Shown in pieces: positions 15,319 through 27,996 of a stretch of DNA of 64,000 bases (position 1 is its first letter; the number at the start of each line of letters is the position of its first letter). The notes under the pieces are model-generated. The model saw only the letters and a program-made list of their open reading frames with translations. It did no database searches and was not told the origin of the DNA. The position numbers and the translations under genes are program-made. Location of the stretch: assembly GCF_017592825.1 (NCBI RefSeq), contig NZ_JAGFMD010000006.1, positions 62,001 through 126,000 on the forward strand. Reading direction: 5' to 3'. This DNA comes from Roseivirga sp. E12 (GTDB lineage: Bacteria > Bacteroidota > Bacteroidia > Cytophagales > Cyclobacteriaceae).

Positions 15319-16104
15319 CTACTGGTTCTTCTGTTCGATATTCTCCATTCGCTGCATCAGCGCTTTCAATTGTTCTTCCACAGAATGTACTTTCTCTTCA
15401 ATCTTTTTCGGGGAATTGAGATGAGTACTCAATTTACCTCTGACCACCCATAGTTCAATAAGAGATTCCATATCAATTGACACCGGCTTAAAGCTTGGAT
15501 TATCGGCAGCCAATTCTAGGGTGTCAAACTTCTCTAATCTACCAACAGCAATCACCTCCTTCGTCACTGCCAAGAGTACTGAATTCTCGTGAGATTGATC
15601 TATACTATCCCAATCCACCTTTTCACAAAACAGAAAGTCACCATGATGAAGCCCTTGTTGGTCAACCACCATATGGTCACCTATCATTTCGAATAGTCGA
15701 TTGACTCCTTTTCCAAGAAACGGCAATTCGCACTTGGGTAAGGACTCCAAAAAATCACGCTTTTGATGATTGACTATATAATTGAGGTGTTGTGATTGAA
15801 GGACGAGACTGGCTTTGCTGGTTTGTTTAGGTGAGGGTACCCCTTGATGCAATGCATCCAGCTTTTGATTAACTAGATTAAAGCTATATAGATCATTAAC
15901 CGTCAGCTCTTTGGTCAATAACACGTCAATTGATAAGCCAAAATAATGAGCAATTTCGATCAATGTCTGAATTTTTGGTTCAGATCTACCCTCCTCATAG
16001 GCCCCTACACTTGGTCTGGCCAAATTAAATAATTCGGCAAAATTAGCCTGAGACAGCTTTCTGACCGCTCTAATGCGCTTTATGTTCTGACCTACGTATG
16101 ACAT
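15319..16104 (-). CDS. XRE-family regulator with degenerate S24/LexA-like C-terminal domain
   Basis: An open frame runs to 16227, but the start at 16104 fits best, giving 261 residues with the helix-turn-helix at once (about 4-60: IRAVRKLSQANFAELFNLAR then PSVGAYEEGRSEPK). The C-terminal part (about 130-225) looks like a LexA/CI dimerisation and autoproteolysis domain, but the catalytic Ser of GDSM is His144 (GDHM) and the Lys of the KRL motif is missing (AVGRLEKF), so self-cleavage is not expected. A coiled coil ends the chain (232-261). It is divergent from the psp-like operon and probably regulates it. Confidence 0.88.
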   Translation of the reverse strand: MSYVGQNIKRIRAVRKLSQANFAELFNLARPSVGAYEEGRSEPKIQTLIEIAHYFGLSIDVLLTKELTVNDLYSFNLVNQKLDALHQGVPSPKQTSKASLVLQSQHLNYIVNHQKRDFLESLPKCELPFLGKGVNRLFEMIGDHMVVDQQGLHHGDFLFCEKVDWDSIDQSHENSVLLAVTKEVIAVGRLEKFDTLELAADNPSFKPVSIDMESLIELWVVRGKLSTHLNSPKKIEEKVHSVEEQLKALMQRMENIEQKNQ

Positions 16105-16135
16105 TGAAAAATAATTGCTAATTTTTTGAGCAACT

Positions 16136-16286
16136 CTAAAACTTTTTGCATATTTGTTTCGTAAACATAGAGTAATTAATTCAAAACATAAACGGTCATG
16201 ATTAAAAATAAGCCTCCAAGGCACCAATTCAAAAGTTTTAGGGCACCACCAACTCTGGTAAATCCCTAAACTTAAGGTAACCTTAA
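16136..16286. promoter_or_regulatory. Operator-like inverted repeats between XRE regulator and psp-like operon
   Basis: Two elements are seen. The first is a widely spaced 11-bp inverted pair, CTAAAACTTTT (16136-16146) and AAAAGTTTTAG (16231-16241). The second is a compact palindrome TTAAGG-TAA-CCTTAA (16272-16286) placed where the -33 box of the rightward promoter would be. Their position between a regulator and its divergent neighbour makes them candidate operators. Confidence 0.5.
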
Positions 16287-16291
16287 ATTTC

Positions 16292-16299
16292 TAAATTTG
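16292..16299 (+). promoter_or_regulatory. Candidate -7 element (TAAATTTG) of the psp-like operon
   Basis: TAAATTTG matches the Bacteroidota -7 consensus TAnnTTTG exactly and lies 37 bp before the first ATG, giving a leader of about 30 nt. No TTTG is seen at the -33 distance; the compact palindrome overlaps that spot. Confidence 0.5.
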
Positions 16300-16336
16300 A
16301 TGTTATCAAAAAACAGACAATAAAATCAACTCAAAA

Positions 16337-16732
16337 ATGGATAACTACTTTCAGAAAGTTAAAAACTACATCACCGACCTAGACTATGCCATACTCATGG
16401 AAGATGAGGCGGATGGTCTAATGGTCATCGAAAGTGAAGAAGACGGAATCAAGAATCTTGTCTTAGGTATTGAAGAACCATTACTCATTATAGAGCAATC
16501 ACTGGTTAACCTTAACGATACCTCGGCAGAAACATACCTCCACTTACTTCAGAAAAACAGAGATATCGTACATGGAGCCTTTGTGGTAGATGAAACCGGT
16601 AAGCGAGTAATCTTCAGGGATACGCTACAGTTAGCTAACCTTGACCTAAACGAATTAGAGGCCTCATTCAATTCTTTGGCCTTACTACTGAGTGAATACT
16701 CAGAACAATTATTAAGTGTAGCAGAAAAATAA
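16337..16732 (+). CDS. YjfI-like (DUF2170/YbjN-like) small acidic protein
   Basis: A 131-residue acidic soluble protein, first gene of the rightward psp-like operon. The layout (beta-rich first half, then TYLHLLQKNRDIVHGAFVVDE, then a helical tail ELEASFNSLALLLSEYSEQL) is like YjfI and other small proteins with the type III secretion chaperone-like fold. E. coli yjfI also directly precedes a PspA-type gene (yjfJ), which supports the assignment by position. It may bind or chaperone the PspA protein; this is inference. It starts 37 bp after a TAnnTTTG element and is followed after 11 bp by pspA. Confidence 0.75.
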   Translation: MDNYFQKVKNYITDLDYAILMEDEADGLMVIESEEDGIKNLVLGIEEPLLIIEQSLVNLNDTSAETYLHLLQKNRDIVHGAFVVDETGKRVIFRDTLQLANLDLNELEASFNSLALLLSEYSEQLLSVAEK

Positions 16733-16743
16733 AAAATAAAGAT

Positions 16744-17451
16744 ATGAACGTATTCAAACGAATGTTTAAAATGGGCCAGGCAGAAGCACATTCTGCATTG
16801 GATCAATTGGAAAACCCAATCAAGTTAACAGAGCAAGGCATAAGAGATCTTAAAAAGGATCTTGACGAAAGCTTAAAAGCTTTGGCCGAAGTAAAGGCAA
16901 TGGCAATTCGCTCAAAAAATGATCTTCAGACTTCTAAAAGCAAGGCTAAGGATTATGAAAACAAGGCCATGCTTCTATTGAAGAAAGCACAGAACGGTGA
17001 TTTCGATGCTTCTGAAGCAGACAGACTTGCCAGCGAAGCTTTGGTGAAAAAAGAAGAAGAGCTAGAGCACGCCACTAGATCACAGGAAGAGGTAAATCGT
17101 TTCGAAACTAACATTGGTCAGTTGGATCAGAATGTTAAGAAAATTAGAGCGACCATCAGTAAGTATGAAAACGAACTGAAAACCTTAAAAGCTAGGGTAA
17201 AAGTGAGTCAAGCAACAAAAAAGCTCAATAAGCAGATGGCTCAAATTGACTCATCTAGTACTGTGACTATGCTTGAGCGTATGAAGGATAAGGTTGCCCA
17301 AGATGAAGCCTTGGCTCAGTCTTATGGAGAAATTGCTAACGAGAGCAAGTCCATCGATGATGAAATCGATAAAGCATTAGAAGGTGGTGAAAGTCAGGCG
17401 AAAGCTGCTGACAGTCTAGCTGCCCTAAAAAACAAACTAGGAATGGAGTAA
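16744..17451 (+). CDS. pspA: PspA/IM30-family membrane-stress protein
   Basis: A 235-residue PspA/IM30 (YjfJ-like) protein. The N-terminus (MNVFKRMFKMGQAEAHSALD) has the amphipathic character used for membrane binding; the rest is nearly all coiled coil, with the KLTEQGIRDLKKDLDESL segment typical of the family near 26-45. PspA proteins are ESCRT-III-like and coat and repair damaged inner membrane. Unlike enterobacterial psp there is no pspF/pspB/pspC here. The gene is second in the operon, and its companions (DUF4178, DUF350, spermidine synthase) match the yjf type of PspA neighbourhood. Confidence 0.93.
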   Translation: MNVFKRMFKMGQAEAHSALDQLENPIKLTEQGIRDLKKDLDESLKALAEVKAMAIRSKNDLQTSKSKAKDYENKAMLLLKKAQNGDFDASEADRLASEALVKKEEELEHATRSQEEVNRFETNIGQLDQNVKKIRATISKYENELKTLKARVKVSQATKKLNKQMAQIDSSSTVTMLERMKDKVAQDEALAQSYGEIANESKSIDDEIDKALEGGESQAKAADSLAALKNKLGME

Positions 17452-17488
17452 TCCATTCTTAGTTTTTCAACCAAAAATAATCACGGTC

Positions 17489-17704
17489 ATGATTACCCAA
17501 AAGTCAAAAAGCTCAAAATATGTCAGCCTCACTATTGGTGTTGTAGTAGCACTTCTATCGGTTTGGCAAGTAAGTGGTAGATCCATTCATTTGAGTAATC
17601 GATTTAGAAAAGCAACGAAAAAAGCCGTTCTGGTACCAGCTATTTATAGCAGTGCCATGACAGCCATTTCGTTACACATTAGTCAATATTTTATTTATCA
17701 GTGA
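17489..17704 (+). CDS. Small membrane protein of unknown function
   Basis: A 71-residue basic protein with one certain hydrophobic segment (about 11-28, VSLTIGVVVALLSVWQVSG) and a weaker one (about 46-66). It lies 37 bp after pspA and 1 bp before the next small gene, inside the operon. No family is recognised. Being short, it rests on operon context and on being followed immediately by further coupled genes. Confidence 0.6.
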   Translation: MITQKSKSSKYVSLTIGVVVALLSVWQVSGRSIHLSNRFRKATKKAVLVPAIYSSAMTAISLHISQYFIYQ

Positions 17705-17705
17705 G

Positions 17706-17870
17706 ATGAGAAGTTTAAGTTATATGGGAGATTTAATTAAAGGCATTTTAGCGATAGCAGTGATCGTCTTTGTCTTCGGATTCGTATTCAGTTTCCTTTT
17801 CAAAGTAGGAATTATACTATTGATCGGGTTAGGAATTTTATACCTGATCCGAAAAGTGTTTATCGACTAA
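17706..17870 (+). CDS. 54-residue membrane peptide in the psp-like operon
   Basis: An ORF of 54 codons starting at ATG 17706 (a second possible start is Met7, 17724) and ending TAA at 17870. The translation is dominated by two hydrophobic segments: about 11-32 (ILAIAVIVFVFGFVFSFLF) and 34-47 (GIILLIGLGILYLI), closed by a basic RKVFID tail. It begins 1 bp after one gene and ends 2 bp before the next, which strongly suggests it is real and translated. It resembles the short PspG/PspB-sized membrane helpers by size only. Confidence 0.65.
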   Translation: MRSLSYMGDLIKGILAIAVIVFVFGFVFSFLFKVGIILLIGLGILYLIRKVFID

Positions 17871-17872
17871 GA

Positions 17873-18373
17873 ATGATTCCTTGGTATAACAAGTTACATC
17901 AAGTTGCATATGACACTCGTGAATCGACTCTTTCATCCGAAGAAATTAGGCATAGAATGGTTGAGCACTTCGAAAAAATAGAGATTAATCCAATCGGCTT
18001 TTTTCAAAGAGCAAAAAACCCTTACGGCTTGAAGTTTAGAAAAGATGATAGCTTCGTAATTCGCCAAACTAATAAGCCTCGTGGAGGAATAGATCCATCA
18101 GAAGCAAGCATAACAATTATAAAAGGAGTTTTAATTGACTTAGGTCAAAATAGAGAGATTAAGTTTGTAGGACAAATACCTTGGATGTGGTTCTTAGGTT
18201 TATTTGCTGCTGTATTGATAACATACTCAATTGGTCTCTTTGCATTTATCTTCTCATGTCTAATCGGATTCATTATTTTAATGTGGTTTAGATATGGTGT
18301 CAAATCAGATATGCAAAAAGTTGATATTGAACTATACAAATGCCTGAAAGAAAAAGAAAATGGGAGTATTTGA
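17873..18373 (+). CDS. Membrane protein of unknown function
   Basis: A 166-residue protein with a soluble basic N-terminal half (about 1-100) and two adjacent membrane segments (about 104-125 and 127-140, LGLFAAVLITYSIGLFAFIF), then a short charged tail. It is more AT-rich than its neighbours. It begins 2 bp after the 54-residue gene and its end overlaps the DUF4178 gene by 14 nt, so coupling is likely. No family recognised. Confidence 0.78.
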   Translation: MIPWYNKLHQVAYDTRESTLSSEEIRHRMVEHFEKIEINPIGFFQRAKNPYGLKFRKDDSFVIRQTNKPRGGIDPSEASITIIKGVLIDLGQNREIKFVGQIPWMWFLGLFAAVLITYSIGLFAFIFSCLIGFIILMWFRYGVKSDMQKVDIELYKCLKEKENGSI

Positions 18374-18905
18374 TTTTCTAAAAAAGAAAAAAGAACCGGC
18401 ATATGATGTCACCAATCTCAGCGTAGCTGATTTGGACGAGGGCTTTGTGTTTGACTACAATCTTAAAAGTTGGGTGGTCAAAGAAGTCTATCAGTACGAT
18501 TGGGGGAAAAACATTTTCACCAAAGAGTTTAAAATAGATGCCGGAGACGAAGCAGCATATTTGAGTGTCGCCAACGAAGGTGAATTATCGTTGAGCATTT
18601 CTAAGTCCATCAAGATTCAAGAGCTGGGAGATGGCATCCGAGAAAAAATTCGGAAGGCCGAAACAGCTCCAGAGAAATTAGAATATCAAGGAATCACCTA
18701 CTATCTGGATGAAGATTCTGCAGGCTATTTCAATGATGTTTCAGCAAAAAAGTCAGATTGGGAAGAATTGGTTAGCTATGACTACCTAAACGATGATGAG
18801 ACACTTTGTGTCAATATCACCCAATGGGACGAGCGCAATTTTGAGGCGTCTGCCGGTAAAGTCATCAAGTCATACGAGATTTCTAATATCACACCAGACG
18901 CATAG
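18360..18905 (+). CDS. DUF4178 domain protein
   Basis: A 181-residue cytoplasmic acidic protein. It starts with the short basic MGVFDFLKKKK then a DUF4178-like fold: VADLDEGFVFDYNLKSWVVKEVYQYDW, a beta-sandwich, and a second related half from about 97 (LEYQGITYYLDEDSAGYF) to WEELVSYDYLNDDETLCVNITQWD. DUF4178 proteins are found next to PspA-type, DUF350 and spermidine synthase genes, where E. coli has yjfK (DUF2491) instead. The molecular role is unknown. It overlaps the preceding gene by 14 nt and is followed after 80 bp by the lipoprotein gene. Confidence 0.85.
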   Translation: MGVFDFLKKKKEPAYDVTNLSVADLDEGFVFDYNLKSWVVKEVYQYDWGKNIFTKEFKIDAGDEAAYLSVANEGELSLSISKSIKIQELGDGIREKIRKAETAPEKLEYQGITYYLDEDSAGYFNDVSAKKSDWEELVSYDYLNDDETLCVNITQWDERNFEASAGKVIKSYEISNITPDA

Positions 18906-18985
18906 TGGCCTCTAAGAGGATTTACTTAACTTTAACATATTAGACCTGGATGTATTTCCAGTTTTAAATCAAGACTAAAGGTTTT

Positions 18986-19747
18986 ATGAAATACGCCAAA
19001 TTAACCGCCATCACCCTTCTGCTTATCGCAGTATCTAGTTGTGGTGGTCGCAGAGATGAGTTTGTCAAAAACCCTGTTGATGATCTCGTAAGAGACATGC
19101 CAACCGATAGGGTCTTTTCCATCGCCCTATACGATATGAACGTAGAGGGCAATTTCTTTGAAGATTACTACCATAAGTATCGAATCATTGAAGAAACAAC
19201 CCCAGGGCAGCCTGAAGAAAGAATAACTGACTGGTATCAAGTATCAGAGAGCCAATTCAAACAGCATGTCGATGACATGGGAATGGAACTCGTCTCACGT
19301 GGTGAGGACGGCAAATTGGTTAAGGAGGTCAGCCCGCCAGGTTACAATAACTATGTTGGTAATGAGAAATATGGTCAATGGACCCAAAGAGATGGTGGCA
19401 GTTTCTGGGAGTTCTATGGCAAGTATGCCTTTATGTCTTCCATGTTCCGGATGTTTACATATCCAGTAAACAGATCATACTACAATGACTACAGGGGCAA
19501 TTACTACGGAAGAGGTAGAGCGTATTATGGACCTACTTCTGGTGGTAGTTCTTACTACGGCACTAACAGTAATTACACCAGAACTAGTAGATCCAATTCT
19601 ACCTGGAGTAACAATAGGTCATCGTTTAAAAATAGGGTCAACAGTAGAACTTCTAGATCTAGCAGTTCTACCTCAAGAACATCACGCTCCTCATCGAGAT
19701 ATGGTGGTTCTAGTTCTCGTTCGCGAGGCGGAGGATTCGGTAAATAA
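18986..19747 (+). CDS. Lipoprotein with Ser/Arg/Tyr/Gly-rich low-complexity tail
   Basis: A 253-residue lipoprotein (lipobox VSSC, Cys19). Residues 20-160 form an ordinary mixed domain. From about 163 to the end the chain is low complexity, first Tyr/Gly/Asn-rich and then Ser/Arg-rich, ending SSSRSRGGGFGK. The plan (lipoprotein, disordered tail ending RGGFG-like) recalls YjfM/YgiB (DUF1190), whose gene stands in the equivalent place in the yjf operon, though the core is not clearly that domain. It lies 24 bp before the DUF350 gene. Partner or ligand unknown; the tail might contact peptidoglycan, nucleic acid or an acidic surface. Confidence 0.8.
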   Translation: MKYAKLTAITLLLIAVSSCGGRRDEFVKNPVDDLVRDMPTDRVFSIALYDMNVEGNFFEDYYHKYRIIEETTPGQPEERITDWYQVSESQFKQHVDDMGMELVSRGEDGKLVKEVSPPGYNNYVGNEKYGQWTQRDGGSFWEFYGKYAFMSSMFRMFTYPVNRSYYNDYRGNYYGRGRAYYGPTSGGSSYYGTNSNYTRTSRSNSTWSNNRSSFKNRVNSRTSRSSSSTSRTSRSSSRYGGSSSRSRGGGFGK

Positions 19748-19771
19748 GCATCAACCCAGACTAACAACCTT

Positions 19772-20632
19772 ATGCAATACTTAGACGGAATACTTTACTC
19801 AATCTTATACCTAGCCGCTTCCTTTATACTTTTCTATATTGGTAAAGTGGCTTACCAACTTTTCCACCCCAAAATTAAGGTAGCCGAGGAGCTAGTTGAA
19901 AAAGACAACTTTGCTTTTTCTGTGGCCTATGTGGGCTATTTCATAGGACTGGTAATTGCGTTGGGTGCCGCAGTATATGGTGAGTCCAATGGCTGGCAAA
20001 TCGACTTGATGGACATGGGAGTTTACGGACTCTTGACCATAATATTGATGAACGTCTCTCTGATCATCAACGATAAAATTGTACTTAGCAAGTTCAGCGT
20101 CAAAAAAGAGATTCTTGAAGATCGGAATGTTGGTACTGGAGTACTCGAAGGGGCCAATGCCATAGCTACAGGACTGATTGTTCTGGGTGCAATTCACGGT
20201 GAAGGACATGGCTTTGGAGGTCCTTTAGTAACCGGTGTTCTTTATTGGGCCCTAGGTCAATTCTTGCTTTTCGTTACTGCTAAGGTTTATGATGCCATTA
20301 CTCCATATGATGTCCATGCTGAAATAGAAAAAGACAACGTGGCGGTTGGTATCGCTATGGGTGGGGCAGTCATTGCCATTGCTAACTTGATTAGGTTTGC
20401 CTTGATGCATGACTTCGAGAGCTGGATCATTACCGTTGAAGATGTAGCCATCGATGTTGCGATTGGTTTGGCCTTCTTACCATTGGCCAGATTGCTTACT
20501 GATAAAATCTTGCTCCCTGGCAGAAAACTGACTGATGAAATCGTCAATCAGGAAAAGCCAAACAATGGAGCAGCTCTTATCGAGGCTTTCGCTTATATCG
20601 GAGGGTCTGTACTGATTACTTGGGCACTCTAA
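19772..20632 (+). CDS. Double DUF350 (YjfL-like) inner membrane protein
   Basis: A 286-residue membrane protein made of two DUF350 repeats (about 1-140 and 145-286) with some seven to eight membrane segments. The repeat is visible by eye: VEKDNFAFSVAYVGYF against IEKDNVAVGIAMGGAV, and NVGTGVLEGANAIATGLIVL against NNGAALIEAFAYIGGSVLIT. E. coli YjfL is a single DUF350 unit of about 130 residues, so this one is a fused duplication. Its function is not known; it follows a PspA-type gene in E. coli as well. A REP-like doublet lies directly after its stop, before the spermidine synthase. Confidence 0.92.
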   Translation: MQYLDGILYSILYLAASFILFYIGKVAYQLFHPKIKVAEELVEKDNFAFSVAYVGYFIGLVIALGAAVYGESNGWQIDLMDMGVYGLLTIILMNVSLIINDKIVLSKFSVKKEILEDRNVGTGVLEGANAIATGLIVLGAIHGEGHGFGGPLVTGVLYWALGQFLLFVTAKVYDAITPYDVHAEIEKDNVAVGIAMGGAVIAIANLIRFALMHDFESWIITVEDVAIDVAIGLAFLPLARLLTDKILLPGRKLTDEIVNQEKPNNGAALIEAFAYIGGSVLITWAL

Positions 20633-20637
20633 TTGGG

Positions 20638-20690
20638 CGTCATTGCGAGTGTGGAAAGTCTAAGAGACTTTTTGCCGAAGCAATCCCCCA
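20638..20690. repeat. REP-like unit, left copy of an inverted doublet
   Basis: The unit starts CGTCATTGCGAG and ends GAAGCAATCCCC; ATTGC pairs with GCAAT, and an inner stem AAAGTCT-AAG-AGACTTT closes the hairpin. The CATTGCGAG...GCAATC pattern resembles interspersed palindromic repeats known from many bacterial genomes. It begins 5 bp after the DUF350 stop codon. Confidence 0.8.
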
Positions 20691-20726
20691 ATTTAACGCA
20701 CTATCTTAACCCTCCTTAAAAATATT

Positions 20727-20766
20727 GAGATTGCCGCACCTCACTGCGTTGAGGCTCGCAATGACG
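20727..20766. repeat. REP-like unit, right (inverted) copy of the doublet
   Basis: The unit starts GAGATTGCCGCAC and ends GGCTCGCAATGACG, the reverse of the left copy, with its own inner stem CCTCA/TGAGG. It ends 7 bp before the spermidine synthase ATG, so hairpins on the mRNA would sit close to the start codon. Confidence 0.8.
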
Positions 20767-20773
20767 ACAAACC

Positions 20774-22312
20774 ATGTCAAAATCCAACATACTCAAATTA
20801 GCTTTATTTGCTACCGGTCTTTCCGGTATTGTAGCTGAGTATGTGCTATCTACTCTGGCTACCTACTTTTTAGGCGACTCCGTTTTTCAATGGACCATGA
20901 TTGTTTCTATCATGCTCTTCTCAATGGGTTTGGGAAGTAGAATAAGCCGATATATTTCGGGTGACCTATTAAAGCGATTTATCTATATAGAATTTATACT
21001 CTCCTTACTCACAGCATTTGTTTCAGTAATTACCTATTTGAGTTCTGCTTATTACGGAGACAATACCATAATCATTTACGGTCTTAGCATTTTGGTTGGG
21101 CTTCTCATCGGTATGGAAATACCCATTGTTATGAGGCTCAATGATGAACACGAAGAATTAAAGATCAATGTCTCTTCAGTGATGGAGAAGGACTACTATG
21201 GCAGTCTGCTTGGAGGTGTCTTTTTTGCCTTTATAGGCCTACCCTATTTAGGGTTAACCTATACACCTTTCATTCTTGGAAGCATCAATTTCCTAGTGGC
21301 CTGCCTGCTCATTTATATCCTGTGGAAATCCATTGAGAGAAGTCTTCAAAAAAGGCTTTTTGTTTTAATTGCTGGTGTAGCACTAATCATTGGGGCAGGA
21401 GCCTTTACCGCAAAGCGTATCATTGACTTCGGTGAAGAACTGCGCTATAAAGACAGGGTAGTTTTCTCGGAGCAAACCAAGTATCAAAGAATTGTAATCA
21501 CCCAATCTAAAGAAGCCTATTGGTTGTTTATCAACGGTAATCAGCAATTGAGTTCTATAGACGAAGTCATGTACCACGAACCATTAGTTCACCCGGTAAT
21601 GGGTCTTTTGAAAAACCCAAAACACATTTTAGTAATGGGTGGCGGTGATGGTGGTGCTGTTCGCGAAATACTAAAATACCCTTCGGTTGAGAAAATCACT
21701 CTGGTAGACCTAGACCCAAGAATGACAGAATTGGGTCAAACCCAAGAATGGTTAGTGAGCATGAATCAAGATGCGTTGAATGATTCTAAAGTCGAAATAA
21801 TCAATGCGGATGGTTTCACATGGTTAGAAAATAATCAAGACTACTTCGATGCGGTAATCATAGACCTACCTGACCCTAAGACTGTAGAGTTGGGCCGACT
21901 CTACTCCTATGAGTTCTATCAGTTATGCTACAATCATCTCAGGCCATATGGTGTCATCACCACTCAAGCAGGATCTCCTTATTATGCCGCAAGGGCATTT
22001 AACTGCATTGACCAAACCATGACAGATGCAGGTTTCACTACTGCACCACTGCACAATCAAGTAGTGACTTTAGGAGAATGGGGATGGGTTATGGGTGTCA
22101 AGGAAGGCGATAAACAAGAACTCAAAACTGCACTTCAATCCCTCAGTTTTGAGGGAATAAAAACAGAGTGGATGAACCAAGAATCCATGACCCTGATCAC
22201 CTCATTTGGTAAACGAGTTTTTCCAGACGATGATAAGCCAGTGGAGACCAATCGTATCCATAACCCAGTTCTCTATAAGTACTATTTAAAAGGGAAGTGG
22301 GATTTGTATTGA
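20774..22312 (+). CDS. Membrane-anchored polyamine aminopropyltransferase (spermidine synthase-like), canonical copy
   Basis: A 512-residue protein with about seven membrane segments in the first 210 residues and a spermidine synthase domain (about 228-500). Motifs of the active enzyme are kept: GGGDGG (289-294) for the decarboxylated SAM site, VDLD (311-314), the catalytic region IIDLPDP (Asp364), and the amine-side DEVMYHEPLVH (about 263-273). It would transfer an aminopropyl group to a diamine such as putrescine near the membrane. No SAM decarboxylase gene is seen in the window. A degenerate paralogue lies at 25760-27208. It is separated from DUF350 by the REP-like doublet. Confidence 0.92.
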   Translation: MSKSNILKLALFATGLSGIVAEYVLSTLATYFLGDSVFQWTMIVSIMLFSMGLGSRISRYISGDLLKRFIYIEFILSLLTAFVSVITYLSSAYYGDNTIIIYGLSILVGLLIGMEIPIVMRLNDEHEELKINVSSVMEKDYYGSLLGGVFFAFIGLPYLGLTYTPFILGSINFLVACLLIYILWKSIERSLQKRLFVLIAGVALIIGAGAFTAKRIIDFGEELRYKDRVVFSEQTKYQRIVITQSKEAYWLFINGNQQLSSIDEVMYHEPLVHPVMGLLKNPKHILVMGGGDGGAVREILKYPSVEKITLVDLDPRMTELGQTQEWLVSMNQDALNDSKVEIINADGFTWLENNQDYFDAVIIDLPDPKTVELGRLYSYEFYQLCYNHLRPYGVITTQAGSPYYAARAFNCIDQTMTDAGFTTAPLHNQVVTLGEWGWVMGVKEGDKQELKTALQSLSFEGIKTEWMNQESMTLITSFGKRVFPDDDKPVETNRIHNPVLYKYYLKGKWDLY

Positions 22313-22321
22313 GCTATTAAA

Positions 22322-23095
22322 ATGAAACTCAGTTTAAAAAGTAAGCTTAAAATCTTATTTATTCATACCAATTACTTGGTAGCCATTTCCATGATTTTTA
22401 TAGCTGTTTTTATCATAAGTAATTATGATTTCTTTGAACTTAGGTCTGCATACTATCTAAAGTCAGAAAGTGAAACTACGAAAGGGGTAATAACTAAGAA
22501 GTGGGTAGCAAACGATCAATATGACTTCAAAATGGCCTATGATTTCTCCTTTCGATTAGACGACTTTGGAGAATTCACAGGAACTAGCTACTCCAAATTC
22601 GACAAGTTCAGTAAAGGAGACACCATTTATATTGATTATGTCCCTTGGGGTCCTTCGTACTCCAAGATTCAAAGATTTGAATTAATCGAAAAGTCAACAG
22701 CTACCCTGTGGATTAGTGGGTTTCTCTGTCTATTCTCCCTAATATTATTTCTTTACTCATTCTTCGATAGGCTATCACTCATCAAAGAACTGAAGCATGG
22801 TCAAATAATAAAAATTGAATTTGACTTTGTCTCATCACCCGATTGGTTTATTAAAAAAATCTACTCTCCAGAAGATGGTTGGGAGTTAAATGACTTTTTC
22901 AGAAAGTATACCTTCTCGTATCAACTTGCCGGTGAAAAGCGACAAGTATTCAGTCTCGTCAGATTTTCGAGGGAAAAATATAAATCGAAAAACCAGTTCG
23001 GCTTGACAAGAAAAAATAAAAGGCCCCGCCTGTTAGTACTCTTACCAAAGACGATACTCAATTCATTTCTTAAGCAATCAGGGCATGAGAATTAA
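22322..23095 (+). CDS. DUF3592-like membrane protein
   Basis: A 257-residue protein with membrane segments at about 13-33 and 128-150. Between them is an extracytoplasmic beta domain with the DUF3592 pattern: GVITKKW, FSFRLDDFGEFTGTSYS, KGDTIYIDYVPWGPS. The C-terminal third is a separate cytoplasmic part with no recognised motif. It follows the spermidine synthase by 9 bp and is the last rightward gene, meeting the leftward operon tail to tail with 11 bp between. It is AT-rich. Function unknown. Confidence 0.8.
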   Translation: MKLSLKSKLKILFIHTNYLVAISMIFIAVFIISNYDFFELRSAYYLKSESETTKGVITKKWVANDQYDFKMAYDFSFRLDDFGEFTGTSYSKFDKFSKGDTIYIDYVPWGPSYSKIQRFELIEKSTATLWISGFLCLFSLILFLYSFFDRLSLIKELKHGQIIKIEFDFVSSPDWFIKKIYSPEDGWELNDFFRKYTFSYQLAGEKRQVFSLVRFSREKYKSKNQFGLTRKNKRPRLLVLLPKTILNSFLKQSGHEN

Positions 23096-23106
23096 AGACA
23101 CGGTCG

Positions 23107-24141
23107 TCAAATATCAATAGCATCAAACCCATCGAAGTCACCCATATCAAACCAGCTGCCAGAGTCACTCACATCGGCCACTGATTCAAAGCCATCCGTG
23201 TCTCCGAAGCCATCCAGTTTGGAATCAAAGTCCAGATCGTCATTGAATAGGTCGGCCTCACCAGCATCTAATCCTGCACTATCAATGGAACCTATGATAT
23301 CGGCTTCCTCCCCCACTAGGGTAACATCACTTATATGCATATGATGATCATGCAGAAGTTCCGACCATAGGAAACTGTAAAGAAGAATTTCTCCGAAACC
23401 AAAGTACCCATCAAATACCGGATCGTAGTCTCTGGTAGGATTCTTCCTCCGCCCTTTCATGATCGGCTTTCGATCTTTTGATTTTGGTATTACAACTCGC
23501 TTATCGATTTCAATCTTCACATCATCGACTTTCATGTGCTTTCTAACTCGCATTCCCAGATCGTTGACAAAGGTCTCGAAGGCTAATTCCTGCTCATTCA
23601 CAAAGCCATTCAAAACTTCCTGAGAGCCAAATCGAGTTTTCATTCTCGCTTTAACACTTTCCTGATTTTCGCCTGACTCTGCCTTAAATTCCTTCATCAA
23701 ACCATTAATCTTGATTTCAATGGGATAGGCACCAACGGCATGAGATCTATTGATATTGATCTCCATGAGGTATACAAAATTCTTGTCCTCATGCTCTAAT
23801 ACCATATACAATGTTTCGAAATGATGCGACATGGCATCATTGATGGTCAATTCATAGTTATCAACCGCTTCTTTTAAATCATCTTCTTTGCCCTCCTTGT
23901 CGTAGTAGATGTCTATATCATCATGAGACAATCGGATGATGTTATTGATGTTCAGCTCCCAAAAAAGCCTGTTCAATTGTTGAAGCACTGAAACTGCAGT
24001 GAAGGTCTCTCTTTCAATTTTTTTGGAAGTAGCACCAGAAGTAATGTAATGCAAAAATTTCTTGAACATTTCATCCGGCTCCACGCGCTCAATCTTGGTG
24101 AGTTGGGATGGATCTATAGAAAGTCGGGCACTGAAATACAT
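23107..24141 (-). CDS. Cytoplasmic protein with Asp/Gly-rich acidic tail, unknown function
   Basis: A 344-residue protein without signal or membrane segments. The N-terminal 245 residues are charged and mixed alpha/beta; a short FGEILLYSFLWSELLHDHHMH stretch lies near 245-268, with three histidines; the last 70 residues are strongly acidic and rich in Asp, Gly and Phe (for example FGDTDGFESVADVSDSG). No known family is seen. It is the last gene of the leftward operon after the flavin amine oxidase-like gene (92 bp). The acidic tail might bind cations, polyamines or basic partners, but that is speculation. Confidence 0.8.
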   Translation of the reverse strand: MYFSARLSIDPSQLTKIERVEPDEMFKKFLHYITSGATSKKIERETFTAVSVLQQLNRLFWELNINNIIRLSHDDIDIYYDKEGKEDDLKEAVDNYELTINDAMSHHFETLYMVLEHEDKNFVYLMEININRSHAVGAYPIEIKINGLMKEFKAESGENQESVKARMKTRFGSQEVLNGFVNEQELAFETFVNDLGMRVRKHMKVDDVKIEIDKRVVIPKSKDRKPIMKGRRKNPTRDYDPVFDGYFGFGEILLYSFLWSELLHDHHMHISDVTLVGEEADIIGSIDSAGLDAGEADLFNDDLDFDSKLDGFGDTDGFESVADVSDSGSWFDMGDFDGFDAIDI

Positions 24142-24233
24142 GGAGTATTGGTTGAATTAATAGAAGTATCAAGATACAAGGAAAGCGGGGCTTCTACCTG
24201 CTTTTCATCAAGAGATATTTCCGCTTATGGCGA

Positions 24234-25745
24234 TCATTTGCCTAATAGTTTGGCAGCCTGTATTCCGGAGTCCATTGCTTCGAAAAATAGAGGTAATCTA
24301 GCGTTGTCAACGCCTGCGAAAGTCATGTTTGTGTATAGGCGATTCTCATTCTTGTCATCGAACAAATAGTCAGGTGTTGGTATTGGCATCGCATGCCCCA
24401 TCACCTTAATATGCACCTCTTTGATCATACCTGAAATGTCTTGATCAAAATACTCGTTTAAGTATCCCACTGTCTTTTCAACGATCACTTCTTTGTTCGC
24501 TTCAACATTTTTAAGATCATTTCTTGAAGCTGGTGGCAAACAATAGTAGGCGGTCAAAACCCGACTTTCAGTATCTCCGGTCTCTTGCATGTCTGAGTCT
24601 ACGAAACCCATAAAAGTTTCGTCTTCCATTAGCATCTCGTTTTGCCAAAAGCCTTTCTTGTCGAGTTTGTTGTCGAGGATAAAATTAAGCACCAACCAAG
24701 GAGCATAAGTGTTTTGTTCGAAGTAGGTGTACTGCTCTGGCATGATGTACTTTAGGGCATGCTTTTGTCCTGCATACACAACATTCAGAGATTCAATCTC
24801 CTTTACCGTCTTGGAAGCAATGTCAACTACCTGAGTTACAAAACCACCATCGTTAGCCTGAATCGACTTTACCAAATGACGAGTGCGCAGACTTTCAGCA
24901 GGTAGGTTACCAGCTAGTCTTTTAATGAAATAGCCATTGCCATCTGGTGGAGAAAATAGGTCGACTACTTGTGTTTCATAGGGTCGGCAGGTGAAATAAT
25001 GTATGCCTGCCAATGCAGAAACCTGATCAGTAGTTCCTCCCCAATCGTCTAGCATATGATAGTCCAATCCTCTTTTGAAGGTTGGCGTGAGGCTCAAATT
25101 TTGATTGAGGAAGTCATGAAAACTAATTTCATTTAGCCCTTTGAGATCCTCATCGATCTCAGTTGTGGGCATAGGCATTCGGCCATAATAAGGCTTGAGC
25201 AAGCTTTGAAAATTCTGTTTCAACTCTCCTTCTGGCAAAACATCAGACCTCATCTTTCCATCTTGAAAGCATTGGTTTTTCCGAGGGTTCGGAATAATGA
25301 ATTGTCTGTCTTTAAAAGACCATGAGTCTTTCCAAGGTTGATATTCAACAATGTCTAAGGACGCTAAAAGCGCCAAGCCTTCTTGACCGTAATTAGATGG
25401 ATAAGCCAAGTCATAATGTGCACCCTGGGCGAAGGTGGTCCCATTAGAATCGATTGAAGAGGAGGTCCCTCCAAGGTTATCTGATAACTCGCAAAGCATA
25501 AAGTCTTGCCCCTTCAGATAATTGGCAGCACTTAGTCCGGCAACACCACCTCCAACAATTAATGTCTCCGTGGTGATCTTTTCATCTTTAGGAAAGGTGC
25601 TACTCTCAAAGATGAGATGACCAGTATGTATATCCGTATAAACAGTAATAGCGAAGTCCCTTTTTGGCGAAGACCAATCACAAGACTTCAAAATCAAAGG
25701 CAGTGTGGCAAGTGACGATATTTTTAGAAACTTTCTTCTCTCCAT
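24234..25745 (-). CDS. Exported FAD-dependent amine oxidase-like protein
   Basis: A 503-residue flavoprotein. The N-terminus has a twin-arginine-like start (MERRKFLKIS) and then LKSC (Cys22), a weak lipobox, so it is probably exported by Tat and perhaps lipid-anchored. The Rossmann motif IVGGGVAGLSAANYL is at 63-77 and the C-terminal FAD motif (GVDNARLPLFFEAMDSG) is near 480. The plan is that of flavin monoamine/polyamine oxidases. It lies 14 bp after the degenerate spermidine synthase gene, which suggests a polyamine substrate; the amine specificity itself is not shown by the sequence. Confidence 0.88.
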   Translation of the reverse strand: MERRKFLKISSLATLPLILKSCDWSSPKRDFAITVYTDIHTGHLIFESSTFPKDEKITTETLIVGGGVAGLSAANYLKGQDFMLCELSDNLGGTSSSIDSNGTTFAQGAHYDLAYPSNYGQEGLALLASLDIVEYQPWKDSWSFKDRQFIIPNPRKNQCFQDGKMRSDVLPEGELKQNFQSLLKPYYGRMPMPTTEIDEDLKGLNEISFHDFLNQNLSLTPTFKRGLDYHMLDDWGGTTDQVSALAGIHYFTCRPYETQVVDLFSPPDGNGYFIKRLAGNLPAESLRTRHLVKSIQANDGGFVTQVVDIASKTVKEIESLNVVYAGQKHALKYIMPEQYTYFEQNTYAPWLVLNFILDNKLDKKGFWQNEMLMEDETFMGFVDSDMQETGDTESRVLTAYYCLPPASRNDLKNVEANKEVIVEKTVGYLNEYFDQDISGMIKEVHIKVMGHAMPIPTPDYLFDDKNENRLYTNMTFAGVDNARLPLFFEAMDSGIQAAKLLGK

Positions 25746-25759
25746 CTATGCGTGGCCCT

Positions 25760-27208
25760 CTACTTTAAGGCATAGTTACCATTTAAATAGTACTTGTAAA
25801 GTGTAGGCTCAATCATTGTATTCACTTGCAGGTCGTTTGTTACACGTGTTGGCTTGCCAAAACTCAGCATCATCTGCATAGCCTCTTGGTTGAGCCACTG
25901 TGTTTGAAAGGCATCAAATTTTGAATTAAAGAGCTTTTCCCTTAGCCTCTCACCTACATCCGCATTCGCTCCAATAATCCAGGACCACTCTCCTAAAGTC
26001 AAGATTTGATTGTGAAAAGTAATCGGGTCAAAGCCGGCTGAATGCACTGTTTTCTGAACTACTTCAAAGGCCTCAGTGGCGAAATAAGGACTACCGGATT
26101 GTGTGACGAACAGACCATCATCTTTTAAAGCAGTTCCAACCAGCTCATAGAATTCCTTGGTAAAGTATTGGTTTCTTTCAAGGTCAATGGGATCGGCAAC
26201 ATCGATAAATATCAAGTCAAAGGATCGTGGATTGTTATTTAGAAAAGTAAAGACATCATCGTTGACATAATCGAGTGTCTTATTTGAGAGACTATTTTCA
26301 TTGAGTGCTGTAAACAGTGTCTCATTTTGAGCCAGTTCATGTAGTTCTTTATCAATCGGGATCAGTTTTAGGTTAGTAATTCTTGTACCTTCGAGCTCTT
26401 TAACCAGCATACCATTCTCTCCCCCAATGACCAAGACATGCTCATAACTTTTGGCCAATTGCAAGGCGGGGTAAACGAAGGGTTCATAGAACAGCCATGA
26501 GTCTATAGAACTGAATTGGTTGACACCATCAGTATAAAACCAATGGTTGCCTCGCCATTCTGTGATATCAATGACTTGCAAATCCGTCTCATAAGAGAAA
26601 ACAAGTTTATCGTGATACTTTGCCTGTCTTTCAAAAAACTTTGGCGATTCAAACACCTGAGCTAAGGCAACAATTCCCAACCCGAAAACCAAGATTACGA
26701 ATGCCTTCATCTTGGACTGCTCCCAATTGTAAGCCAGCAAACCAACTACGAAAAAGAGCACTAACAATCGACTAAACTCATGGTCAGTTGAGAACAAGCT
26801 CATGATAAAACCCGCGCCCATGGCGGGAATTAAAAGAAGACTGATCCAATTCGGGTCTTCTGTATTCCTGCCAAAACGTAGGACTGACACCATTATACCA
26901 GCCAATAAGACCAGCAATATGTAGGTCACAAACTGAGGCGAATTAAGTTGAGAATACAGCCAGAATTCTAGTTTTAACCAGGCTAAGGGAAGTATTAGAA
27001 GTACGAAAACCAGATTCTTAATCCAGTTCTTTTTTGAAAGGTTTTTCCATATGATATAACATGAGGTCAAAAAAATGACACCAAAGACCACAAAGTCAAT
27101 TTGGGGTTTTTCATAGAAATACTTAGCAAGCACTATAGGGTAAGCCAAGCAATAGCCCACAAGCAAACCTCCTGAAATCAATAGTTGTCCTTTCAAGACA
27201 TTGTTCAT
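25760..27208 (-). CDS. Membrane-anchored spermidine synthase-like protein, degenerate paralogue
   Basis: A 482-residue paralogue of the protein at 20774-22312: several membrane segments (first 190 residues), then an aminopropyltransferase-like domain. The key motifs are altered: GGGDGG reads GGENGM (262-267), the amine-side DE...YHE...VH reads DS...FYE...VYP (about 236-246), while IDVADP keeps the catalytic-region Asp. So a canonical aminopropyl transfer is doubtful; it may be a regulatory subunit, bind another ligand, or catalyse a different transfer. It is 4 nt overlapped with the K+ channel upstream and 14 bp from the flavoprotein downstream. Confidence 0.88.
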   Translation of the reverse strand: MNNVLKGQLLISGGLLVGYCLAYPIVLAKYFYEKPQIDFVVFGVIFLTSCYIIWKNLSKKNWIKNLVFVLLILPLAWLKLEFWLYSQLNSPQFVTYILLVLLAGIMVSVLRFGRNTEDPNWISLLLIPAMGAGFIMSLFSTDHEFSRLLVLFFVVGLLAYNWEQSKMKAFVILVFGLGIVALAQVFESPKFFERQAKYHDKLVFSYETDLQVIDITEWRGNHWFYTDGVNQFSSIDSWLFYEPFVYPALQLAKSYEHVLVIGGENGMLVKELEGTRITNLKLIPIDKELHELAQNETLFTALNENSLSNKTLDYVNDDVFTFLNNNPRSFDLIFIDVADPIDLERNQYFTKEFYELVGTALKDDGLFVTQSGSPYFATEAFEVVQKTVHSAGFDPITFHNQILTLGEWSWIIGANADVGERLREKLFNSKFDAFQTQWLNQEAMQMMLSFGKPTRVTNDLQVNTMIEPTLYKYYLNGNYALK

Positions 27209-27996
27209 TCTTCTGCCTTCTCCCCTTTTTTATTTTTCTTCTTGCTACTCAGTTCTGACTCAAAGCCTCCAGCTATAATACCGGCTGGTAGTGCAAAGAG
27301 TCCAACTCCCAAGATGGCGATAACTGCGCCAAGTACTTTGCCCAAAGCGGTGACAGGATAAACATCTCCGTACCCTACAGTAGTAAGCGTGGCAACACCC
27401 CACCACATGGTCTCCGGAATACTTTGAAAACCAGCTTTATCCGGCTCATATTCGATATAATACATCAAGGTTGATGCAAAAATCAAGAGGATAATCAATA
27501 GAGTCAATGTGACAACCAACTCTTCTCTTCTCTTCTTAATAACGGTGGTAATCAAGCCGAAGGCGAGTGAATAGCGTCCAAGCTTAAATATTCTAAAAAG
27601 CCTAAAAAGCCTCAATACTCTTACTATTCTTCCGTCTGCATGATTGATCAGGAATGGTAAGTAAAATGGAATGATTGCTAAAAGGTCTATAATGGCTTCG
27701 ACAGAAACCATGTATTTCAGTCTACCCCAAAGTGGGTGTTTATACTTTTCAAGAGCAGTACATGCCCATACACGAATTATATATTCTACACTGAATACAA
27801 TAACAGAAAAGATCTCGAAGTACTCAAAAACCAATTCATATTTACTATGAATCGAGTCTACGGTTTCAACAATGACCGCTGCCACATTGAGCAGGATCAA
27901 GGCCATAATGAACTGATCAAACCGCTTACTGACGATGTCTTTTTCGTCCGCTTTGTCTAGCGTTCTAAGTACCTTTTGTTTAGCTGACTTACTCAT
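27205..27996 (-). CDS. Voltage-gated-type potassium channel
   Basis: A 263-residue six-segment channel. S1-S4 occupy about 28-140, with a regular array of arginines in S4 (RIVRVLRLFRLFRIFK, 123-138). The pore has the K+ filter TVGYGD at 206-211, flanked by S5 (162-181) and S6 (221-242). A basic KKKNKKGEK tail ends it; no RCK domain is present. It is the first gene of the leftward operon and overlaps the spermidine synthase paralogue by 4 nt, so the two are coupled. It is likely to let K+ flow when the membrane is depolarised, in keeping with a membrane-stress role. Confidence 0.94.
   Translation of the reverse strand: MSKSAKQKVLRTLDKADEKDIVSKRFDQFIMALILLNVAAVIVETVDSIHSKYELVFEYFEIFSVIVFSVEYIIRVWACTALEKYKHPLWGRLKYMVSVEAIIDLLAIIPFYLPFLINHADGRIVRVLRLFRLFRIFKLGRYSLAFGLITTVIKKRREELVVTLTLLIILLIFASTLMYYIEYEPDKAGFQSIPETMWWGVATLTTVGYGDVYPVTALGKVLGAVIAILGVGLFALPAGIIAGGFESELSSKKKNKKGEKAEE

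What the first reader, a model, noticed from the sequence alone, without database searches (positions are those of the whole stretch)
15319..27996. A PspA-polyamine-membrane locus: membrane stress proteins with two spermidine synthase-like proteins, an amine oxidase and a K+ channel
Two operons meet tail to tail (rightward 16337-23095, leftward 27996-23107). They join an XRE regulator with a dead S24-like domain, YjfI-like, PspA, small membrane proteins, DUF4178, a tailed lipoprotein, double DUF350, two membrane-anchored aminopropyltransferase-like proteins, an exported flavin amine oxidase-like protein, an acidic protein and a voltage-gated K+ channel. Seen directly: motifs, overlaps, operon spacing. 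Known: E. coli yjfIJKLM joins YjfI, PspA-type YjfJ, DUF350 and DUF1190, next to a glutathionylspermidine-synthase-like gene. Inference: polyamines made and oxidised at the envelope tune membrane repair and K+ flow under stress.
Basis: partly seen in the sequence, partly recalled or inferred. Interest (0 to 1): 0.9.

Follow-up and report, generated by a model that had tools for sequence, protein, structure and literature searches.

The report
Membrane-stress operons with membrane-bound aminopropyl enzymes
A Bacteroidota bacterium carries two operons facing each other that join a membrane-repair protein (PspA) to membrane-anchored relatives of the polyamine-making enzyme, an exported amine oxidase-like protein and a potassium channel; one half is already described, but the paired second half, with a worn-out copy of the enzyme kept under selection, is a conserved variant for which I found no description.

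Summary
In detail: all named ORFs lie where stated and domain searches confirm most identities. The rightward operon (CesT/Tir-PspA-DUF4178-lipoprotein-DUF350-7TM/spermidine synthase) is the "second major group" of PspA operons of Ravi et al. 2024 (PMC11237479), so it is known. The leftward arm (K+ channel-APT2-Tat-signal flavin oxidase AOX) is no accident of one genome: 13 loci, window included, have both arms convergent, and AOX occurs in 27 of 148 family genomes, always with a membrane aminopropyltransferase. Two corrections. (1) Only APT1 keeps the dcAdoMet site; APT2 forms one fast-evolving clade, 0 of 20 members keep GGGDG, yet it is under purifying selection: a retained pseudoenzyme-like paralogue, not a second synthase. 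(2) Twelve relatives carry a compact AdoMet decarboxylase in the left arm and no detected soluble SpeE, so dcAdoMet there has no other visible consumer; genomes with a SpeD-SpeE fusion, like this one, lack the local SpeD. Best reading: envelope aminopropylation plus periplasmic oxidation coupled to PspA. The acceptor is unknown.

The parts
15319..16227 (-). XRE regulator with degenerate S24-like C-terminus, divergent from yjfI; true start probably near 16134
   Evidence: HTH_3 4e-11, S24 under cut-off; nine relatives aligned, most of them divergent from yjfI, none with the S24 GDSM motif
16337..16732 (+). YjfI-like CesT/Tir-fold protein
   Evidence: PF22550 1e-51; paired with PspA in relatives
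16744..17451 (+). PspA/IM30 protein, the only one found in the genome
   Evidence: PF04012 2.6e-40; single hit genome-wide
17489..17704 (+). small 1-TM protein, found in no relative searched
17873..18373 (+). small 2-TM protein, found in no relative searched
18360..18905 (+). DUF4178 protein
   Evidence: PF13785 3e-18
18986..19747 (+). lipoprotein with S/R/G-rich tail
   Evidence: lipobox VSSC and tail read directly; conserved in right arms
19772..20632 (+). double DUF350 membrane protein, 8 TM
   Evidence: PF03994 twice, 4e-57
20774..22312 (+). APT1: 7TM domain plus aminopropyltransferase domain with intact dcAdoMet site
   Evidence: NCBIfam PRK03612.1 563 bits, cut-off 472; motifs; model pLDDT 90, soluble part like SpeE, target-normalised TM-score up to 0.80
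22322..23095 (+). m257, 2-TM protein, lineage-specific passenger at the junction
   Evidence: no relative found
23107..24141 (-). ACID: acidic C-terminus, facultative junction gene
   Evidence: relatives mostly elsewhere; at the same junction in L147 and L150
24234..25745 (-). AOX: Tat-signal, putative lipoprotein, flavin amine oxidase-like
   Evidence: PF01593 5e-10; RR nearly invariant, FAD motif; always with a TM-APT in 148 family genomes
25760..27208 (-). APT2: 6-TM protein with degenerate aminopropyltransferase domain (GGENG)
   Evidence: Spermine_synth 5e-22; donor motif lost in all 20 APT2-type proteins aligned; one clade; purifying selection
27205..27996 (-). KCH: voltage-gated-type K+ channel with TVGYGD filter
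   Evidence: Ion_trans 1.5e-37; filter read directly; next to APT2 in L107, L109, L113-115, L117, L119

Best explanation
The locus is a two-armed envelope-stress system. A 7TM aminopropyltransferase (APT1) uses decarboxylated S-adenosylmethionine on the cytoplasmic side to put an aminopropyl group on a membrane-associated amine (a lipid headgroup or membrane-held polyamine), making the membrane surface more cationic. A flavin oxidase exported folded by Tat acts on the product, or on released polyamine, on the outer face and so removes or limits the charge. APT2 is a catalytically lost duplicate of APT1 kept next to the oxidase, probably as a partner or ligand-sensing subunit. PspA, the CesT/Tir-like protein, DUF350, DUF4178 and the lipoprotein read or repair the membrane; the K+ channel restores potential; the XRE protein controls the right arm. 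Shown by sequence: gene content, conservation, intact donor site in APT1, lost site in APT2, SpeD linkage, Tat signal. Inferred: substrate, topology, direction of flow, role of APT2, coupling to PspA and K+.
For: APT1 donor residues are conserved in 24 of 24 APT1-type proteins and shared with soluble SpeE; the soluble domain is predicted to fold like SpeE. Eighteen family genomes carry a compact SpeD, all within about 3 kb of a TM-APT; those aligned keep the catalytic ESHxxxHTxPE. In the 12 such genomes with APT2 no soluble SpeE was found, and no genome carries both a fusion and a compact SpeD. AOX: 27 of 27 genomes have a TM-APT (Fisher 8e-17), 25 of 27 have SpeD; in a phylum sample 12 of 12 AOX lie next to a TM-APT; in other phyla 53 of 70 lie within 400 bp of an APT. 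APT1-PspA: 41 of 43. Both same-genus genomes lack PspA, the TM-APTs, AOX and ACID together. APT2: dN/dS 0.15-0.22, one clade, grouping with APT1.
Against: Thirteen of 48 genomes with a TM-APT have no detectable SpeD, so the donor is not settled there. The PTYP loop differs from soluble SpeE, so the acceptor cannot be read off. AOX matches the amine-oxidase superfamily too weakly to name a substrate; protoporphyrinogen, putrescine and L-amino-acid oxidases score alike. Some SpeD relatives decarboxylate ornithine or arginine instead (PMC10407285). Co-occurrence counts ignore relatedness of the genomes. No expression data. K+ coupling rests on adjacency alone.
Confidence: 0.5

Rival explanations
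1. APT1 is an ordinary spermidine (or related polyamine) synthase that happens to be membrane-anchored; AOX is a polyamine oxidase and the locus simply sets free polyamine levels near the membrane.
For: Donor residues, DxxDP and YHE are intact; NCBIfam equivalog model passed; Ravi et al. propose polyamine sensing.
Against: The window genome already has a SpeD-SpeE fusion; the PTYP loop of soluble SpeE is changed to VTL-G or PSF-G with one residue deleted; AOX has a Tat signal while APT1's catalytic domain should be cytoplasmic.
Confidence: 0.3
2. APT1 is a 7TM methyltransferase or aminocarboxypropyl transferase using AdoMet itself, like the fungal 7TM N-terminal histidine methyltransferase annotated as spermidine synthase.
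For: Precedent for misannotation of 7TM-SpdS fusions (PMC10349129); 13 genomes have TM-APTs without detectable SpeD.
Against: That enzyme is told apart by loss of the acidic residue in GxG(D/E)G; APT1 keeps D in 24 of 24, and compact SpeD genes sit beside TM-APTs.
Confidence: 0.12
3. The two arms are independent modules that are neighbours only because both are gained and lost in the same genomic island.
For: In several genomes the arms lie on different contigs or far apart (G311, G374, G368, G342, G305); junction genes are variable.
Against: APT2 occurs only with APT1 (23 of 23) and in 22 of 23 with AOX; convergent adjacency recurs in 13 loci; APT2 groups with APT1 in the tree.
Confidence: 0.08

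Closest known systems
PspA operon group 2 of Ravi et al. 2024 (PMC11237479), e.g. AAN56744-AAN56747
   Same: CesT/Tir-PspA dyad, DUF4178, lipoprotein, DUF350, 7TM fused to spermidine-synthase-like domain
   Different: Here an XRE instead of an RHH regulator; two extra small membrane proteins; a convergent second arm with K+ channel, degenerate APT paralogue and Tat-signal flavin oxidase
Ravi et al. variants without the PspA dyad that carry AdoMet decarboxylase and polyamine oxidase
   Same: SpeD, DUF350, TM-APT and flavin oxidase linked (seen here as SpeD-DUF350-APT-AOX-MP350 in L153, L162, L165 and others; equating these with Ravi's variants is my inference)
   Different: [quoted passage not shown] the loci seen here have a single, intact APT
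E. coli yjfIJKLMC (group 3 of Ravi et al.)
   Same: CesT/Tir-PspA dyad, DUF350, in the group also a K+ channel
   Different: Uses an ATP-grasp glutathionylspermidine-synthase-like enzyme, DUF1190 and DUF2491, none of which is in this locus
Fungal 7TM histidine methyltransferase NHMT (PMC10349129)
   Same: 7TM domain fused to spermidine-synthase-like fold
   Different: Lacks the acidic donor residue; APT1 keeps it
Trypanosomatid AdoMetDC prozyme (PMC6221367, abstract only)
   Same: Catalytically dead paralogue retained in polyamine metabolism
   Different: Different enzyme (decarboxylase); no complex demonstrated here; analogy only

Membership tests
PspA operon group 2 (Ravi et al. 2024) | CesT/Tir-PspA gene pair | tested here: met
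   16337-16732 PF22550, 16744-17451 PF04012
PspA operon group 2 (Ravi et al. 2024) | 7TM fused to spermidine-synthase-like domain | tested here: met
PspA operon group 2 (Ravi et al. 2024) | DUF350, DUF4178 and lipoprotein in the same operon | tested here: met
   identity of the lipoprotein with the Ctha_1186 domain not tested
PspA operon group 2 (Ravi et al. 2024) | RHH transcription factor as last gene (optional) | tested here: not met
   no such domain found; a divergent XRE gene instead
Spermidine synthase (SpeE), APT1 | dcAdoMet-binding GxG(D/E)G and catalytic DxxDP | tested here: met
   24 of 24 APT1-type proteins
Spermidine synthase (SpeE), APT1 | acceptor-side PTYP loop of soluble SpeE | tested here: not met
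   VTL-G with one residue deleted (only 5 soluble SpeE rows, two identical)
Spermidine synthase (SpeE), APT1 | makes spermidine | not testable with these tools
   needs an assay
Spermidine synthase (SpeE), APT2 | dcAdoMet-binding GxG(D/E)G | tested here: not met
   GGENG in the window; 0 of 20 APT2-type proteins keep GGGDG; 227 bits against NCBIfam cut-off 472
7TM methyltransferase NHMT-like (APT1) | acidic residue of GxG(D/E)G replaced | tested here: not met
   APT1 keeps D292
Flavin amine oxidase | superfamily domain over curated cut-off | tested here: met
   PF01593 39.6 bits, cut-off 19.8
Flavin amine oxidase | oxidises an amine | not testable with these tools
   closest solved enzymes are mixed
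Tat-exported protein (AOX) | twin arginine in N-terminus | tested here: met
   first R invariant, second at least 90% in 24 homologues; export itself not tested
E. coli yjfIJKLMC type | ATP-grasp glutathionylspermidine-synthase-like gene, DUF1190, DUF2491 | tested here: not met
   no such domain among the proteins of the locus
LexA/S24 autoprotease (XRE C-terminus) | catalytic Ser and Lys, score over cut-off | tested here: not met
   GDHM or GSEM in place of GDSM; 15.3 bits, cut-off 23.3; the Lys was judged by eye only
Voltage-gated K+ channel | Ion_trans domain and K+ selectivity filter | tested here: met
   129.6 bits, TVGYGD; conductance not tested

The most novel reading that the evidence does not exclude
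APT2 is a bacterial counterpart of a prozyme: a duplicated, catalytically dead aminopropyltransferase retained by selection beside an exported oxidase, controlling APT1 (or sensing its product) in a pathway that decorates a membrane molecule, not a free polyamine, with aminopropyl groups, and whose state is read out by PspA and a K+ channel.
Probability: 0.25. Interest if true: 0.85.

Novelty: new variant of a known kind. Interest (0 to 1): 0.6.

Why it matters
Membrane-fused spermidine synthase homologues are widespread and annotated as polyamine enzymes, but I found no report of what they make. This locus narrows the question: genomes with a dedicated SpeD and no detected soluble SpeE leave the membrane enzyme as the only visible dcAdoMet consumer, so labelling experiments can show what it modifies. 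The retained degenerate twin gives a natural non-catalytic partner to test, and the tie to PspA offers a chemical handle on a stress system that is poorly characterised outside proteobacteria.

Tried and rejected
(1) APT2 as a second spermidine synthase: rejected on motifs. (2) The whole system as a methyltransferase system: kept only as a weak rival because APT1 keeps the acidic donor residue. (3) ACID as a core component: relatives mostly lie elsewhere, several beside a 146-152 aa partner, so facultative, though it recurs at the junction in two other loci. (4) The first genome-contig scan with APT2 found nothing, probably because APT2 evolves fast; the AOX alignment worked. (5) Solved-structure search with the single AOX sequence: no hit; the profile found the superfamily only. 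(6) Fold search of MP350: best E 0.62, no match. (7) A common palindromic XRE operator upstream of yjfI: none found, only similar sequence around the XRE start. (8) Eukaryote-type AdoMet decarboxylase PF01536 in the 13 SpeD-less genomes: none, but the control also rang nowhere, so uninformative. (10) Li et al. 2019 on a polyamine-independent role of SpeD is not held in the library; known here only by title and through its citation in Ravi et al..
Full report
What is there. The rightward operon encodes a CesT/Tir-type YjfI-like protein, PspA (the only one found in the genome), two small membrane proteins, DUF4178, a lipoprotein with an S/R/G-rich tail, a double DUF350 protein, APT1 (7TM plus spermidine synthase domain) and a 2-TM protein. 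The leftward operon encodes a K+ channel, APT2 (six hydrophobic stretches plus a weaker spermidine synthase domain), a flavin amine oxidase-like protein (AOX) and an acidic protein (ACID). The tails are 11 bp apart.

What is already known. Ravi et al. 2024 (PMC11237479) describe the rightward operon as their second major group of CesT/Tir-PspA operons, with the same DUF4178, lipoprotein, DUF350 and 7TM-spermidine synthase genes. I did not see the second arm with a degenerate APT in the passages read; their supplementary tables could not be opened.

What is conserved beyond that. In 148 genomes of the same family, APT1 homologues of 56% identity or more occur in 43, AOX in 27, an APT2-type paralogue in 23, PspA in 57 and SpeD in 43 (tallied; the APT1/APT2 split was made from identity and place). 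APT2 occurs only with APT1 (23 of 23) and in 22 of 23 with AOX; AOX only with a membrane APT (27 of 27); APT1 in 41 of 43 with PspA. These counts ignore relatedness. The convergent layout recurs: window, L107, L110-L115, G433 and G365 in the family, and L147, L149, L150 from named records, 13 loci in all. In L107, L112-L115 and G433 the APT1 and AOX tails are within about 30 bp or overlap; in the others the tails are further apart, mostly with genes inserted at the junction (m257 and ACID in the window, a helicase in L110, small toxin-antitoxin-like genes in L111). The closest named relative, Roseivirga sp. UBA6061 (L147, AOX 65% identical), shares the flanking order SSF-TerC-MGMT-like-SNF with the window (the last three names are read from the sequences), so the place is inherited. 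Both same-genus genomes in the sample lack PspA, the TM-APTs, AOX and ACID, so both arms are absent together there.

APT1 is intact, APT2 is not. Against solved spermidine synthases APT1 aligns at 1.7e-32 and keeps YHE, GGGDG and DxxDP; 24 of 24 APT1-type proteins keep these. Predicted structure: mean pLDDT 90, soluble part matching SpeE structures with target-normalised TM-score up to 0.80. None of 20 APT2-type proteins keeps GGGDG; many read GGENG or GGDNG, and the ribose-site acidic residue and the YHE histidine are usually lost. APT2 proteins form one clade in all bootstrap trees, grouping with APT1 and not with the AOX-linked enzymes of other phyla, on long branches; long branches make exact placement unsure. 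APT2 is still under purifying selection: dN/dS 0.22 in one pair and 0.15 in a second pair whose synonymous distance is near saturation. So it is retained but probably not an aminopropyltransferase. In L149/L150 the AOX-linked copy still has the donor Asp (GAGDG), so the loss is so far seen only in the window's family and close relatives.

The donor is probably dcAdoMet. In relatives the left arm starts with a compact AdoMet decarboxylase of about 97 aa with the pyruvoyl motif intact. All 18 compact SpeD genes in the family sample lie within about 3 kb of a membrane APT; the 12 genomes that pair it with APT2 show no soluble SpeE. Genomes with a SpeD-SpeE fusion, as the window's, lack the compact SpeD; no genome has both. 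This fits a need for one dcAdoMet source and speaks against the methyltransferase rival suggested by the fungal 7TM enzyme (PMC10349129). Against it, 13 genomes with membrane APTs have no detectable SpeD, several of them near-complete.

The acceptor is unknown. The PTYP loop conserved in the five soluble SpeE rows available here is VTL-G in APT1 and PSF-G in the other membrane enzymes, with one residue deleted. That this loop binds the acceptor in soluble SpeE is from memory of solved structures. The change suggests a different acceptor but does not identify it.

The oxidase. AOX homologues share a twin-arginine N-terminus and FAD motif; export is inferred from this. Its profile matches protoporphyrinogen, putrescine, L-amino-acid, polyamine and monoamine oxidases with similar weak scores, so 'amine oxidase' is a superfamily name. 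In other phyla the homologues lie within 400 bp of a membrane APT in 53 of 70 strong loci; a further few have it within the locus and several are cut by contig ends.

Mechanism and limits. The best-supported reading is an envelope system where dcAdoMet-dependent aminopropyl transfer by APT1 and oxidation outside by AOX alter membrane charge, with PspA and its partners acting on the membrane. Gene content, linkage, donor-site conservation and APT2 degeneration are shown; substrate, topology, regulation and K+ coupling are inferred. No expression or biochemical data were available.

Noticed in passing
L150:6816-7913, L149:8929-10008, L153:6710-7732 and relatives: MP350: a 340-370 aa multi-helix membrane protein with invariant His, Asp and Glu (DxxH, HFxxQQYG, NxxxHGxPY, PQxxHYxxD) linked to AOX and the membrane APT in several phyla; no Pfam, NCBIfam or PDB fold match. 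Not in the window locus.
   Followed up: partly
family genomes G307, G382, G423, G364, G436 and eight others: Membrane APT present but no detectable AdoMet decarboxylase: donor unknown.
   Followed up: partly
window 23107-24141; L147:11855-12943; L150:9446-10588: ACID protein recurs at the APT1/AOX junction in three loci although most relatives lie elsewhere, several beside a 146-152 aa partner.
   Followed up: partly
G000:C11:282461-283519 (L056:7444-8724): SpeD fused to SpeE in one ORF of about 426 aa, the genome's only detected SpeD.
   Followed up: yes
upstream of yjfI, window about 16106-16337: Similar sequence around the XRE start in several relatives (AAAACTTTtGnCAT...CGTAAA) that may be the XRE promoter or operator.
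   Followed up: partly
L108:2776-7767, L128:13788-18728, L129:421-5352: In some relatives the DUF4178-lipoprotein-DUF350-APT1 genes follow a roughly 1650 aa protein; the L129 copy matches DUF3686 and AAA ATPase.
   Followed up: no
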